The notes beneath the pieces were generated by a model. It was not told where the DNA came from and searched no databases. It saw only the letters and a program-made list of their open reading frames with translations. From positions 868,001 to 932,000 of the forward strand of contig NZ_QEKM01000001.1 of NCBI RefSeq assembly GCF_003096555.1: a stretch of 64,000 nucleotides of DNA. Direction: 5' to 3'. Position 1 is the stretch's first letter; every line of letters starts with the position of its first letter. Of this stretch, positions 16,788-56,931 are shown piece by piece. The stretch comes from Simplicispira sp. 125 (GTDB taxonomy: Bacteria; Pseudomonadota; Gammaproteobacteria; Burkholderiales; Burkholderiaceae_C). The translations under genes were made by a program, and so were the position numbers.

Positions 16788-16845
16788 TATTTTTGGCCTC
16801 TAGCGCTTTATGGATAAGCGATAGCAGCTATAAATTATATAGCAT
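16788..16845. repeat. Interspersed repeat copy upstream of rlmB (IS1595 target)
   Basis: TATTTTTGGCCTCTAGCGCT, then TTATGGATAAGCGATAGCAG and CTATAAATTATATAGC, is a clear copy of the window's interspersed repeat. Its first 8 bases are the target-site duplication of the IS1595 element. Confidence 0.75.
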
Positions 16846-26413: not shown

Positions 26414-26464
26414 CCCTAGCGCTTATCCATCAAGCGCTGATAGCTATCATAAAAATAGCTATTG
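26414..26464. repeat. Interspersed repeat copy between chrA and the FAH gene
   Basis: CCCTAGCGCTTATCCATCAA, then GCGCTGATAGCTATCATAAA, is a near-complete copy in the divergent promoter region. Note the internal inverted repeat AGCGCTTATCCATCAAGCGCT. Confidence 0.7.
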
Positions 26465-30064: not shown

Positions 30065-33000
30065 TTAGCCGCGCCAGGCTACTTCGCCCCCCGTCGCCAC
30101 CGCCTGCGCCCGGCCCAGAGCTTCGAGCGTTTGCAGCAGCGTGGGCAGGCCTTTCTTCCAGGGGCCACGGCCTTTGAAGCGGGCTTCGATGGCGCTCAAT
30201 GTGAGCGGGATGGGGCTGGCGGCCAGTGCGTCGGCCACGGCGCGCACCTGCTCGGGCAGGGTGGCGGGCCAGGGGTGCTGGGCGGGTTTGGTTTGCTCTG
30301 GTTTTGATAGCGATTTTTCACTATCAAAATCAGCCTCTGGCGCTTGATCATCTTGCGCAAGCAGCTCCTGTTTTTGCACTGAATTTTGCGGATTTTGAAA
30401 GTCCGGCCGCAGCCAGCGCACGCGGCCCTGGGCTTCCTCCTGCGCACGCTGGGTGTTGAGCTGCACCAGGTAGGCCAGGATGTCGTCGGTGCTGGCCGTG
30501 GCGGGCAAGCCGTAGGCCGCCAGCACGGCGGCATCGAGCTCGTCGTGCAGCTCGCGCAGCACGCCCACCAGGCCCTGGGTGTGCTGGGTTTTCTCTTTGG
30601 CCGTGAGCGCCCGGCCTTCGCGCAGGGCCGCCAGCACGTTGTAGATGCCGGTGAGGGTGAGGCCGGTGTTGCCGGATTCGGGCGCCAGCACGCGCTTGCG
30701 GTGGGCGTCGATCTGCTCGGCCAGCTGGGCGATGCGCTCGCGCAGGGGCGGGGTCAGGCCGGTGTCTTCGTCGGGGAAGGGGAAGGTGTCGAAGCAGGTG
30801 GATTTGCTGTACACCGGGTCATTGCCCACGCCCAACCGGCCACCGAGAGCCAATGCCCAGCAGACATGCAATTGACTGGAGAGGACGCCCAGGGAGAAAG
30901 CGTCGTCGAGTGCGATAGCAATCAATTTGTCGTCCGGCAGGATGCTGGCATCCAGGAATTGGAAGACGCGGTGTTTGGAGACTTGACCGGTAGCGATGTA
31001 GCGATCAAGCGACGCGACGGACTGGCGCATCCTTGGTTGATCTTCTGCGAACCTCCACCAATAATCGCGTCGTTTTGGTCGCGGATTTTGGTCACGGTCG
31101 GGTTTCACTCGTTCAAGTAGCCATTGGTAGACGGCAGGATATTGCGTGCGTAAATCCTCAGCGCTGAATCCAAATGCATCGATCACGCGGACACCACGGG
31201 GCGCGTCCGTCAGGTCACGTCCATTACGGTATTCACGCAGGATGGAAGGGCTGCCTAGCGCCGCCGCTTGCTCTTTCGTAACGATGAAACCCGCACCGTG
31301 TGGAATGACCCCGCGATTGGCGATCTGGGCGTTTGCTCGCAAGGGTTGCGCTTTCGCGACATTCGCGCCGAGGCTCAAGTCGGCATGAAGCAAACCAGTA
31401 CGTGTCAACATTTCCACTGTGGTCTCTCCATGCTCACCAGGACGCTCGTCCATCACGGTGTGAAGGCGACCGTCGCCAGCGCCGCCAGCAAGCGCTGTCA
31501 TGGCAATCCGCACCGCCGCACCGTTGGCGCTGTCCACCCAGGGATGGTCGGAAATCGCCATTTCCAGATGGGTGTTTTGGTCCAGCGCTGCCTGCACTAC
31601 GCGACGGTTAAAGATCATCGTCAGGCTGTTGGTGGTGATCAGCCCCATGCGCCGCGTTTGGCCTGCGGTCACTTGCGCGGCGGCGTGGTGCCACCAGAAC
31701 ATCACAAAGTCGGCGCTTTCCGGAATCTCGGGCCACGCGCCGCGCAGGGCTTGCACATAGCCGTCGCCCAGGGCATCGCGCATCCGCTTGTTTCCAATAA
31801 ACGGCGGGTTCCCCACAATGAAATCCGCTTGCGGCCACTGGGCCTTGCGTGCACCCACGTAGCGCCATTGCGGCACCTGGGCGGCTTCGTCGGGCACTAG
31901 TTCGCCCGTTACAGGGTGGGTCTTGAACGTGGTGCCGTCCCAGCGGCTGAGCAGCTGGTCGGCGTCGTCATAGGCCAGCTCTTGCGCGTCCCAGGCCAGC
32001 ACGGCGTCGCGGCATTCGATGTTGCCGTAGTTGTGCACCACGGGCTCGGCCACGGCGGTGTTGCCTCGGGTGCGGATGTGCCACTGCAGGTAGCCGATCC
32101 ACAGCACCAGCTCGGCCAGGGCGGCGGCGCGTTCGTTGAGCTCGATGCCGCGCAGTTGCTGCAGGGTGACGGTTTCGCCTTCAAAGCCGAGCTGGTCTTG
32201 CGTGTGCCCTAATTCTTCGAGCTGGTTGACGACTTCGCCCTCCAGGCGCTTCAAGTGCTCCAGCGTCACGTACAAGAAGTTGGCGCTGCCGCAGGCCGGG
32301 TCGAGCACGCGGGTGGCGCACAGCTGGTGGTGGAATTTTTTGACCTCGGCGCGGGCCTCGGCCAGCTTGGCTTCCATCGCTTTGCCTTGCAACGCGGCGG
32401 CCTCGTGCGCCAGCACCAGGGCGGCGGCCTGGGCGTTGGCCCAGTCTGCGCGCAGGGGCTCGATGACGGTGGGCAGCACCAGGCGCTCGACATAAGCGCG
32501 GGGCGTGTAGTGCGCGCCCAGGGCGTGGCGCTCGGCGGGGTCGAGCGCGCGTTCGAGCAAGGTGCCGAAGATGGCGGGCTCGACCTCGCGCCAGTTGGAC
32601 TTTGCAGCGGCGATCAGCAGGTCGATCTGCTCGGGCGTGAGCAGCAGGCTGTAGCCGTCTTCGCCTGCGCCCTTGAACAGCTTGCCGTTGAAGTGCAGCA
32701 CGGGCTTGGCCAGCGCGGCAGAAAAGCCGCCCCGGTCCATGTCGGCCCACAGAATACGCAGCATCTGCTGCAGCGTGGCGGGGTCGTTGCGATGGGTTTG
32801 CAGCAGGCCGAGGAAGGCACCTTTGGGCAGCAGTTCCACATCCTCCGCAAACATGCTGAAGAGGCAGCGGGTGAGGTAGGATGCTATTATTTCGGGAGCT
32901 ATTAACGATTGCTGGTATTGGGTTTTGCTGTATTTGTGGTATAATTTCTGTTCTGTTCTGTTCTGTTCTGTTCTGTTCTGTTCTGTTCTGTTCTGTTCTG

Positions 33001-33682
33001 TTCTGTTCTGTTCTGTTCTGTTCTGGGCGACAGGCGATTCGAGCGACTTGGCCAATCGCGCCAGCAGTGCAGACACGTCGCGCGTGACCTGCGCGCTGAT
33101 GCGTGCGGGGTTCAGGCTGTCGGGGTCTTGCCAGATGCGGCGCAGGCGGTCTTGCACCTCGGGGCGGGCCAGGTCGGCCAGCTGCAGGCGGTGGCTGCGC
33201 GGGTCGGGGTAGGGGGTGTAAGTGCCGCCGGTTTTGCTGAACTCGGCGTACACCTCGATCACGGTGCCGACATCGACCACCAGCACGAAGGGCGGGCGAC
33301 CCTCGTGGGCGGGCAGGGCGCGGGCATATCCCTCGCCCTGGCTGCGGGCGCGCAGCAGGCCGTCGTCAAAACCTTTGGTGTGGCTACCGGCCTTGAGCTT
33401 TTTGGCCTCCAGCACAAAGTGGCCGCGCCGGTAGCAGTCGATGCGCCCCGCGCTGGTGCTGCCGTCGCCATGGGCAAAGGTGACGGGGCGCTCGAACATG
33501 TAGTCCTGCTCGGGCGTGGGGTGGGGCTTGGCCATGCCCAGCAGCGCGCACAGGTCGATGACAAAGCTTTGTGCGGTGGCCAGCTCGCTGGCGGTGGTGC
33601 CGCTCCAGCGGGCAATGAAGTCTTGCGCGGCGGCGCTGTGAACCGGTGCGCTGGCGCCTGTGGCGGTGTTGTGGGCTCCCAT
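30065..33682 (-). CDS. MmeI-like fused restriction-modification enzyme with in-frame (CAGAA)16 tract
   Basis: The 1205-residue single-chain enzyme combines nuclease, N6-adenine methylase and target recognition, as in Type IIL MmeI-like systems. The N-terminal nuclease core is D82-x9-E92-x-K94 ([17 protein letters not shown]), the same spacing I recall for MmeI. Residues 220-246 are encoded by 16 tandem CAGAA units (QNRTE repeated). A helical connector follows, then methylase motif I ([14 protein letters not shown], about 459-472) and motif IV GNPPFIG (about 622-628). The putative target-recognition region lies after about 780. A winged-helix-like C-terminus (about 1120-1205) is joined by a linker encoded partly by an interspersed repeat. 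The frame is open throughout, so this copy is ON. No separate specificity or restriction gene adjoins. Confidence 0.9.
30301..30366. repeat. Interspersed repeat copy inside the restriction-modification gene
   Basis: GTTTTGATAGCGATTTTTCA, CTATCAAAATCAGCCTCTGG and CGCTTGATCATCTTGCGCAA form a diverged copy that includes GTTTTGATAG..CTATCAAAAT as an inverted repeat. It is read in frame as the linker before the C-terminal domain. Confidence 0.55.
32880..32945. repeat. AT-rich segment next to the CAGAA tract, possible interspersed repeat
   Basis: GATGCTATTATTTCGGGAGC, TATTAACGATTGCTGGTATT and the following T/G-rich bases are much more AT-rich than the gene around them. They resemble a longer variant of the interspersed repeat. 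The segment encodes [20 protein letters not shown] immediately after the tandem repeat. Assignment is tentative. Confidence 0.35.
32946..33025 (-). repeat. Pentanucleotide tandem repeat (CAGAA)16 in coding sequence
   Basis: Sixteen perfect copies of TTCTG on the plus strand (80 bases) read as CAGAA on the coding strand. As 5 is not a multiple of 3, any gain or loss not divisible by three units shifts the frame. None of the three frames has a stop inside the tract. Just downstream, one alternative frame stops within about 45 bases and the other stays open to about 32181. Confidence 0.97.
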
Positions 33683-44229: not shown

Positions 44230-44279
44230 GTTTTGATAGCTGCTCGCGCTTGATGGATAAGCGTTGGAGGCCGTTTTTA
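44230..44279. repeat. Interspersed repeat copy between glpD-like and FGGY genes
   Basis: GTTTTGATAGCTGCTCGCGC, then TTGATGGATAAGCGTTGGAG and GCCGTTTTTA, is a clear copy. Its end supplies the stop codon of the glpD-like gene. Confidence 0.7.
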
Positions 44280-56860: not shown

Positions 56861-56931
56861 AATTACTATGAAAAATATAGCTGCTTGCGCTTACTGGTAA
56901 ATCGCTAGAGGCTAAAAATATATCAATTTTT
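56861..56931. repeat. Interspersed repeat copy downstream of the aminotransferase gene
   Basis: AATTACTATGAAAAATATAG, then CTGCTTGCGCTTACTGGTAA and ATCGCTAGAGGCTAAAAATA, is one of the best-preserved copies. It sits between the CSD-DUF1294 start and the aminotransferase terminator. Confidence 0.75.

What the first reader, a model, noticed from the sequence alone, without database searches (positions are those of the whole stretch)
30065..33682. MmeI-like restriction-modification gene with an in-frame (CAGAA)16 tract: candidate phase-variable methylome switch
Seen: sixteen perfect 5-base repeats inside an otherwise intact 1205-residue fused nuclease-methylase gene. The unit length is not a multiple of three, no frame has a stop within the tract, and one alternative frame stops within about 45 bases. 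Known: pentanucleotide and tetranucleotide tracts of this size in restriction-modification genes switch ON/OFF by slipped-strand mispairing in several pathogens (classically Type III mod genes). Inferred: this single gene would switch cleavage and methylation together, so an OFF cell loses both safely, and methylation-dependent gene expression could vary between siblings. I do not recall this described for MmeI-like enzymes in Comamonadaceae.
Basis: partly seen in the sequence, partly recalled or inferred. Interest (0 to 1): 0.85.

Follow-up and report, generated by a model that had tools for sequence, protein, structure and literature searches.

The report
Slippery-repeat switch in restriction-methylation gene
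A bacterial DNA-cutting and DNA-marking enzyme carries a run of sixteen five-letter repeats in the hinge between its two halves, and relatives carry quite different repeats at the same hinge, some of which put the gene out of frame, so it very probably flips on and off at random.

Summary
A perfect (CAGAA)16 tract lies in frame at 32946-33025 in a 1205-aa MmeI-like (Type IIL) restriction-modification gene, 30065-33682 minus strand. It is unique in the genome and sits in the flexible tether between nuclease domain and helical spacer/methyltransferase. Counts of 13, 16 or 19 units read through; 14 and 17 stop at codon 257/262; 15 and 18 near codon 500.

The stronger result comes from relatives. 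At this same tether, homologues carry tandem repeats with ten different units of 5, 7, 8, 10 or 11 nt, some in frame, some not. Acidovorax genome G443 has (ACCAGCCG)3.6 out of frame with an intact 935-aa second half; four further half-gene sets share a contig length. Tract carriers are scattered on the gene tree. The closest relatives have about 2 units, or only the second half. This supports slipped-strand ON/OFF switching and a recurrent hotspot.

Not shown: switching within a clone, methylome change, expression effects. One octamer allele (G422) is decayed, and tracts are a minority of homologues. Phase-variable MmeI-like enzymes are known in Helicobacter (homopolymer tracts), so this is a new variant of a known kind.

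The parts
30065..33682 (-). MmeI-like Type IIL restriction-modification gene, 1205 aa, ON at 16 units
   Evidence: PADLOC REase_MTase_IIG PDLC03627, 1395 bits, residues 18-1194; PDB 5hr4 MmeI, E 7.2e-28
33038..33631 (-). MmeI_N nuclease domain (residues 18-215)
   Evidence: Pfam PF20464, E 6.4e-22
33401..33439 (-). D82...E92-A-K94, invariant in the alignment; reads as the PD-(D/E)XK nuclease motif
   Evidence: invariant columns in 46 sequences; assignment of these residues to the motif is recalled
32946..33025 (-). (CAGAA)16 slippage tract, coding strand, codons 220-246, between nuclease domain and helical spacer
32879..32945 (-). AT-rich remainder of the linker insert after the tract; its end aligns with the linker insert of relatives, which in turn matches an interspersed repeat elsewhere in the window
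   Evidence: alignment and blastn; lengths
32899..32904 (-). TAA TAG double stop met in the frame of 14/17 units
32852..32854 (-). ATG of Met277, where the listed second halves of split homologues begin (MFAEDV...)
32675..32887 (-). MmeI helical spacer domain (residues 266-336)
   Evidence: Pfam PF20465, E 7.2e-14
31502..32359 (-). MmeI methyltransferase domain (residues 442-727), with DPACGSANF (461-469) and NPPF (625-628)
   Evidence: Pfam PF20473, E 2.4e-31; motifs seen
30833..31585 (-). variable target-recognition region (about residues 700-950)
   Evidence: Pfam PF20466 at 849-971; 58-76% identity per block to P0002 here against 86-100% upstream
30300..30376 (-). in-frame stretch near the C-terminus that resembles the interspersed repeat

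Best explanation
The gene encodes a single-chain Type IIL (MmeI-type) enzyme that cuts and methylates DNA. The (CAGAA)n tract codes for a repeat peptide in the flexible tether between the nuclease domain and the helical spacer/methyltransferase/recognition module. Replication slippage adds or removes 5-nt units (inferred). One count in three keeps the frame and makes the whole enzyme. The other two end translation soon after the nuclease domain or about 250 codons later, before the NPPF methylation motif and the recognition region, so neither specific cutting nor methylation is expected (inferred). The cell line therefore alternates at random between a state with this restriction and methylation activity and one without. 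Shown here: the anatomy, the frame consequences, and in-frame and out-of-frame alleles among relatives at the same place with ten different unit sequences. Inferred: that slippage occurs at a useful rate in this strain, and that selection (phages, incoming DNA) keeps such tracts.
For: Anatomy and frames. Same-site tracts with unrelated non-triplet units: DNA for CAGAA, GACGG, ACCAGCCG, AGTCCAGC; among the 352 proteins held, 19 linkers were periodic (aa period 4 to 14) and 15 of these fit exactly one non-triplet DNA word, adding AGTCCGC, CAGACCAG, CAACTCAG, CCATCCAG, TCGACAGCGC and GGCTCAACAGC. G443 is OFF with an intact 935-aa second half. 25 of the 112 proteins new are 880-1000 aa and begin at the same Met. 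Close relatives P0002-P0004 (94-100% identical per 50-residue block over the first 200 residues) have about 2 units; P0260/P0261 are listed as second half only. In 47 Acidovorax genomes the octamer pattern lies at 6 loci in 5 genomes, 3 of the 6 in this gene; in 399 family genomes it is in 6, none of which has this gene. Tract carriers are scattered on the nuclease-domain tree: 18 rows need 13 changes, at least 6 forced by supported branches, 0% of bootstrap trees with one clade. Two alleles look as if unit number offset a nearby 1-nt indel: the window's tail is 51 nt against 52 in G161, and P0085 is out of frame just before the tract and back in frame after it.
Against: No reads or sister clones: unit variation within one strain is not shown. 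Tracts are a minority: 1 of 12 genus loci read, 2 of 8 in Acidovorax plus one contig-broken locus, 1 of 37 in the rest of the family sample. G422 is OFF and also has an in-frame stop and a frameshift in its second half, so that allele looks dead. Linkers are also interrupted without a non-triplet tract: L135 by an in-frame stop, L051 by a frameshift. Triplet tandems exist: (CAAGCACAG)4.6 in L105, and 4 of the 19 periodic protein linkers fit no non-triplet unit (which did not look below aa period 4, so some 6- and 9-nt units were missed). Truncated proteins were favoured by the length filter, and their stop codons were checked on DNA only for G422 and G443. Carriers are slightly clustered on the tree (8 of 500 shuffles as low). 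The ON state of the window rests on the 1-nt shorter tail: a base-calling error there would make 16 units OFF. Pairwise dN/dS is low in OFF and ON alleles alike, which fits recent or reversible OFF states but cannot prove reversal.
Confidence: 0.73

Rival explanations
1. The tract is a neutral expansion in a tether that tolerates any insertion. The linker took up an interspersed repeat, microsatellites grew at its edge, and frame loss simply kills the gene now and then; there is no selected switch.
For: Linkers of relatives hold in-frame interspersed-repeat sequence, long unrelated inserts, triplet tandems (L105; 4 of 19) and an in-frame stop without a tract (L135). G422 is OFF and decayed. 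The three non-MmeI octamer loci in Acidovorax each lie 44-91 bp from a GCTAT...ATAG repeat-like stretch, against 0 of 7 octamer loci in other genera.
Against: Octamer tracts are rare in genomes, but 3 of 6 Acidovorax tract loci hit this gene. G443 keeps an intact second half while OFF.
Confidence: 0.19
2. The split genes are sequencing or assembly errors, or ordinary pseudogenes, and the 16 units of the window are fixed.
For: Several truncated proteins come from short metagenome contigs; the G454 contigs end inside the tract; G422 has further lesions.
Against: G443 is a single 4,966,379-bp contig with a clean tract and intact halves. dN/dS shows purifying selection.
Confidence: 0.08
3. In one OFF frame translation restarts at Met277 and makes a methyltransferase-recognition module without nuclease, so the tract toggles between cut-and-mark and mark-only.
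For: The stop of the 14/17-unit frame lies some 45 nt before ATG277; in G443 the stop is about 60 nt before it. Gene callers start the second half there in 28 of 112 proteins.
Against: Met277 is an invariant residue of the spacer, so the ATG is there anyway; the restart would lack residues 266-276 of the spacer; no obvious ribosome-binding site precedes it (by eye).
Confidence: 0.06
4. Length tuning: in-frame changes of three units (5 residues) alter the tether and the reach or efficiency of cutting, rather than ON/OFF switching being the point.
For: The nuclease domain of MmeI is flexibly tethered (PMC4833311, passages) and tether lengths vary widely among homologues.
Against: Non-triplet units make this the rarer outcome of a slip, and out-of-frame alleles are found in nature.
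Confidence: 0.04

Closest known systems
MmeI, Type IIL enzyme (PDB 5hr4; PMC4833311, passages seen)
   Same: Same domain order and homology over most of the chain. [quoted passage not shown] the tract lies in that tether.
   Different: The passages seen do not speak of phase variation; this protein has a long repeat-bearing insert in the tether.
Helicobacter pylori JHP1272 / HP1353-HP1354 (PMC3936762, passages seen)
   Same: Single-chain Type IIG enzymes that the authors liken to MmeI and suggest are Type IIL; a homopolymer tract turns them ON/OFF.
   Different: Homopolymer tracts; a second tract there changes specificity. Here one tract of 5-nt units in the nuclease-spacer tether, with unit sequences that differ among relatives, in Comamonadaceae.
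Campylobacter jejuni Cj0031 (PMC4889913, passages with parts of the abstract seen)
   Same: Single-gene Type IIG enzyme switched by slippage, with reported methylome, expression and phage effects; recognition region varies between strains.
   Different: Poly-G tract near position 2573 of the gene, far downstream of the nuclease-spacer junction.
Type III mod and Type I phasevarion genes (PMC7394358, passages seen)
   Same: Short tandem repeats inside a methyltransferase reading frame switch it ON/OFF; 17.4% of Type III mod genes and 10% of Type I systems are given as repeat-bearing.
   Different: Restriction and modification in separate genes; the surveys named in those passages cover Types I and III.
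PglX of the phage growth limitation/BREX systems (recalled, not looked up)
   Same: Weak PADLOC hits to PglX models; a poly-G switch in Streptomyces pglX is recalled.
   Different: Part of a multi-gene system; no fused nuclease of this kind (recalled).

Membership tests
MmeI / Type IIL restriction-modification enzymes | nuclease, helical spacer, m6A methyltransferase and recognition domain in one chain, in this order | tested here: met
   All four MmeI Pfam domains above cut-off in order
MmeI / Type IIL restriction-modification enzymes | sequence homology to MmeI beyond one domain | tested here: met
   phmmer to 5hr4, E 7.2e-28, main stretch residues 266-536, second 618-972; the nuclease part alone did not score
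MmeI / Type IIL restriction-modification enzymes | intact catalytic motifs of nuclease and methyltransferase | tested here: met
   D82, E92, K94 and DPACGS invariant, NPPF nearly invariant in 46 sequences; motif roles recalled
MmeI / Type IIL restriction-modification enzymes | methylates one strand only; cuts about 20 nt away | not testable with these tools
   Needs purified protein or SMRT data
Simple-sequence contingency (phase-variable) genes | tract in the reading frame, unit not a multiple of three, slip gives truncation | tested here: met
Simple-sequence contingency (phase-variable) genes | in-frame and out-of-frame alleles occur naturally | tested here: met
Simple-sequence contingency (phase-variable) genes | unit number varies between near-identical alleles | tested here: inconclusive
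   About 2 units in P0002-P0004 against 16 in the window, but they differ in the recognition region and may be sister species; no reads available
Simple-sequence contingency (phase-variable) genes | measured reversible switching within a clone | not testable with these tools
   Needs reads or sub-clones of the isolate
Phasevarion | methylation change alters expression of many genes | not testable with these tools
   No methylome or transcriptome at hand

The most novel reading that the evidence does not exclude
The nuclease-spacer tether of MmeI-type enzymes in Acidovorax and relatives is a dedicated hotspot where new microsatellites with unrelated 5-11 nt units are born, lost and exchanged again and again. 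Single-chain Type IIL enzymes would then be a third class of repeat-driven DNA-methylation switches, beside Types I and III, in free-living bacteria, each switch paired with a different, exchangeable recognition region.
Probability: 0.44. Interest if true: 0.76.

Novelty: new variant of a known kind. Interest (0 to 1): 0.64.

Why it matters
Repeat-driven switching of DNA methylation is known mostly from host-adapted pathogens and from Type I and III systems. Here it appears in single-chain Type IIL enzymes of Comamonadaceae, and the same spot of the gene carries many different repeats in different lineages. That makes a natural experiment: if unrelated repeats recur at one hinge, selection for switching restriction itself (not for one regulon) is a likely driver, and this can be tested by phage challenge and methylome sequencing. 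It also warns that half-genes annotated as separate MmeI-N and methyltransferase proteins in these genomes may be OFF alleles, not pseudogenes.

Tried and rejected
Chance: rejected (0 in 100 shuffles). A genome with many CAGAA tracts: rejected. One inherited ancestral tract: not supported; carriers are scattered on the nuclease-domain tree, although recombination of the linker between alleles could scatter them too. That tree used 110 rows chosen by me from the lists plus three loci; P0003, P0004, P0085 and P0240 were left out by hand, and P0052, P0132 and P0151 fell out through a text filter. Its bootstrap had not settled, and P0168 has a long branch. Restart at Met277 is kept as a weak rival. 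AlphaFold on residues 1-620 gave a poor model (mean pLDDT 65; residues 220-225 and 237-258 below 50), so it is used only as mild support for a disordered tether, and no fold search was run. Genus searches of G161 and G048 returned one genome each. The check for repeat-like stretches beside other octamer tracts looked only at the first match per strand; it was redone, and the report uses. The tally left out G020, whose two contigs end in the linker without a visible tract, and distant MmeI-like hits of about 40% identity. Paper searches for phase-variable Type IIG, MmeI with phase variation, Type IIL, Comamonadaceae with phase variation and tandem repeat (no paper), Acidovorax, REBASE/phasevarion, Burkholderiales and octa/heptanucleotide tracts listed no paper on such tracts in Comamonadaceae MmeI-like genes; these were capped listings read by title and start of abstract. 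One of them (PMC3759439, listing only) concerns phenotypic variants of Acidovorax citrulli. Two reviews were seen in passages only (PMC12707154; PMC12456177). Cyanobacterial heptamer repeats led nowhere.
Full report
What is there. The window is part of a single-contig 3,966,897-bp genome. Its genus is very probably Simplicispira or a close neighbour: genome G004 of the same genus carries at contig 38 the locus that the named record of Simplicispira metamorpha DSM 1837 (contig ...038) also carries, with the same match values; this naming is an inference. The gene at 30065-33682 (-) encodes 1205 aa with the four MmeI Pfam domains in order, a hit over residues 18-1194 to a PADLOC Type IIG model and homology to the MmeI crystal structure. 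Presumed catalytic residues are invariant or nearly so among 46 sequences.

The tract. (CAGAA)16 occupies codons 220-246, between the nuclease domain (18-215) and the helical spacer (266-336). In MmeI this junction is a flexible tether: the nuclease domain is disordered in the crystal (PMC4833311, passages). A weak AlphaFold model also has low confidence here, among other places (220-225, 237-258). The repeat is perfect, absent from shuffles, single in the genome at four units and single in the genus at three units. With 13, 16 or 19 units the gene reads through; the other counts tested truncate it at codon 257/262 or 499/504.

Relatives carry different repeats at the same place. The linker of more distant homologues is short (ARSLEQAGHAPQxVAA type). 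In Acidovorax, Simplicispira and neighbours it is longer, often with an in-frame piece that matches an interspersed repeat found several times in the window. In a subset there is a tandem tract just after the LAKSLE motif. DNA shows CAGAA (window), GACGG (G161, whose contig has the length of the Acidovorax sp. MR-S7 record of L041), ACCAGCCG (G422, G443) and AGTCCAGC (G454 and L042). From proteins, because a non-triplet unit is read in all three frames, the DNA word can be solved: of 19 periodic linkers among the 352 proteins held, 15 fit exactly one non-triplet unit, adding AGTCCGC, CAGACCAG, CAACTCAG, CCATCCAG, a 10-mer and an 11-mer; the other 4 fit none and are presumably triplet-multiple repeats, and aa periods under 4 were not looked for. 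That is ten units of 5, 7, 8, 10 and 11 nt. The protein lists are biased: the truncated ones come from a search limited to short proteins. In 80 named contigs 72 could be read: one non-triplet (the G161 locus again), one triplet (CAAGCACAG in L105), and one frame-shifted without tract (L051). Two loci could not be read across in the unnamed set (L176, L154) and eight in the named set; G020 was left out because its contigs end in the linker.

ON and OFF alleles. The window and G161 are in frame. G422 is out of frame too, but its second half also has an in-frame stop and a frameshift, so it is probably dead; this counts against a purely reversible picture. G454 is broken at the tract into two contigs with 9 and 11 units at their ends. 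In the protein database, N-half and C-half entries with identical longest-contig lengths occur five times among the 35 + 35 entries that I compared out of 120 + 120 listed: G443 itself, Acidovorax sp. JHL-9 (ACCAGCCG), two more with repeats (P0139, P0141) and one without (P0134). Twenty-five of the 112 proteins new are 880-1000 aa and start at the same methionine. Pairwise dN/dS in both halves is low for OFF and ON alleles alike (0.05-0.38 and 0.025-0.17).

Close relatives. P0002-P0004 are 94-100% identical to the window protein per 50-residue block over the first 200 residues and 96-100% from 250 to 600, but carry only about two units and a different recognition region (58-76% at 700-950). 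P0260 and P0261 match the window at 96-100% per block from the start of the second half to residue 600 and are listed as second half only. So in the nearest lineage the tract is not constant, and recognition regions are swapped. Two alleles suggest that unit number follows frame: the window's tail after the tract is 51 nt against 52 in G161 and G454, and P0085 leaves the frame before the tract and regains it after. Both could also be base errors.

Is the hotspot real? In 47 Acidovorax genomes the octamer pattern (CAGYCSAS)3 was found at 6 loci in 5 genomes, 3 of them at this gene (the two G454 contig ends counted as one locus). In 399 family genomes it was found in 6 genomes, none of which has this gene; the gene context of those other tracts was only listed, not settled. 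On a tree of 110 nuclease domains, 18 tract carriers need 13 changes, at least 6 of them forced by supported branches; no bootstrap tree has them as one clade, though they are slightly clustered (8 of 500 shuffles as low). Repeated gain, loss or exchange is thus favoured over one origin; gain cannot be told from exchange.

Mechanism, in steps. Shown: in-frame non-triplet tract; truncation in the other frames; natural ON and OFF forms. From established knowledge: such tracts slip in replication. Inferred: the OFF products lack recognition and methylation, so cutting and marking vanish together. A restart at Met277 giving a mark-only enzyme is not excluded, but there is no positive evidence for it.

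Comparison. As a kind this is a phase-variable single-chain restriction-modification gene. Precedents are C. jejuni Cj0031 (PMC4889913) and H. pylori JHP1272/HP1353-1354, which the authors relate to MmeI and Type IIL (PMC3936762). New, as far as the listings go, are the taxon, the long-unit tract in the nuclease-spacer tether, and above all the turnover of unrelated units at one site. The published surveys named in passages of PMC7394358 deal with Types I and III.

For these, confidence went from 0.74 to 0.73, the neutral rival from 0.18 to 0.19 and the novel case from 0.45 to 0.44.

Noticed in passing
window 26416-26445, 44238-44277, 30327-30370, 56879-56913, 16803-16824: Matches (77-90% identity; the last one weak, E 0.05) to the linker insert of L034: a short interspersed repeat with a core like CTAGCGCTTATCCATCAAGCGC...AGCT. 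The linker insert of relatives and a C-terminal stretch of this gene look like in-frame copies of it.
   Followed up: partly
L188, L221, L189 (Acidovorax genomes G425, G440): The three octamer tracts outside this gene lie 44-91 bp from a GCTAT...ATAG repeat-like stretch; none of the seven octamer loci in other genera has the pattern within its locus; background 5 hits in the 64-kb window. Microsatellites may be born beside this repeat family.
   Followed up: partly
G000:C1:495496-496323 (outside the window): A second, distant MmeI-like locus (42% identity over residues 267-566) with a TAG inside.
   Followed up: no
P0002-P0004, P0260, P0261 against the window protein, residues 700-950: Recognition region exchanged between otherwise nearly identical alleles.
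   Followed up: partly
P0085: Reading frame shifts just before the repeat tract and is restored after it: either a natural compensation by the tract or a base error.
   Followed up: no
L186 / L135 (G145): Linker filled by a long GC-rich inverted-repeat-like insert with an in-frame TAA; another break at the same tether, without a microsatellite.
   Followed up: no
L171 and L222 (G454): Assembly broken exactly in the tract, with 9 and 11 units at the two contig ends; similar breaks may hide more tract alleles.
   Followed up: partly
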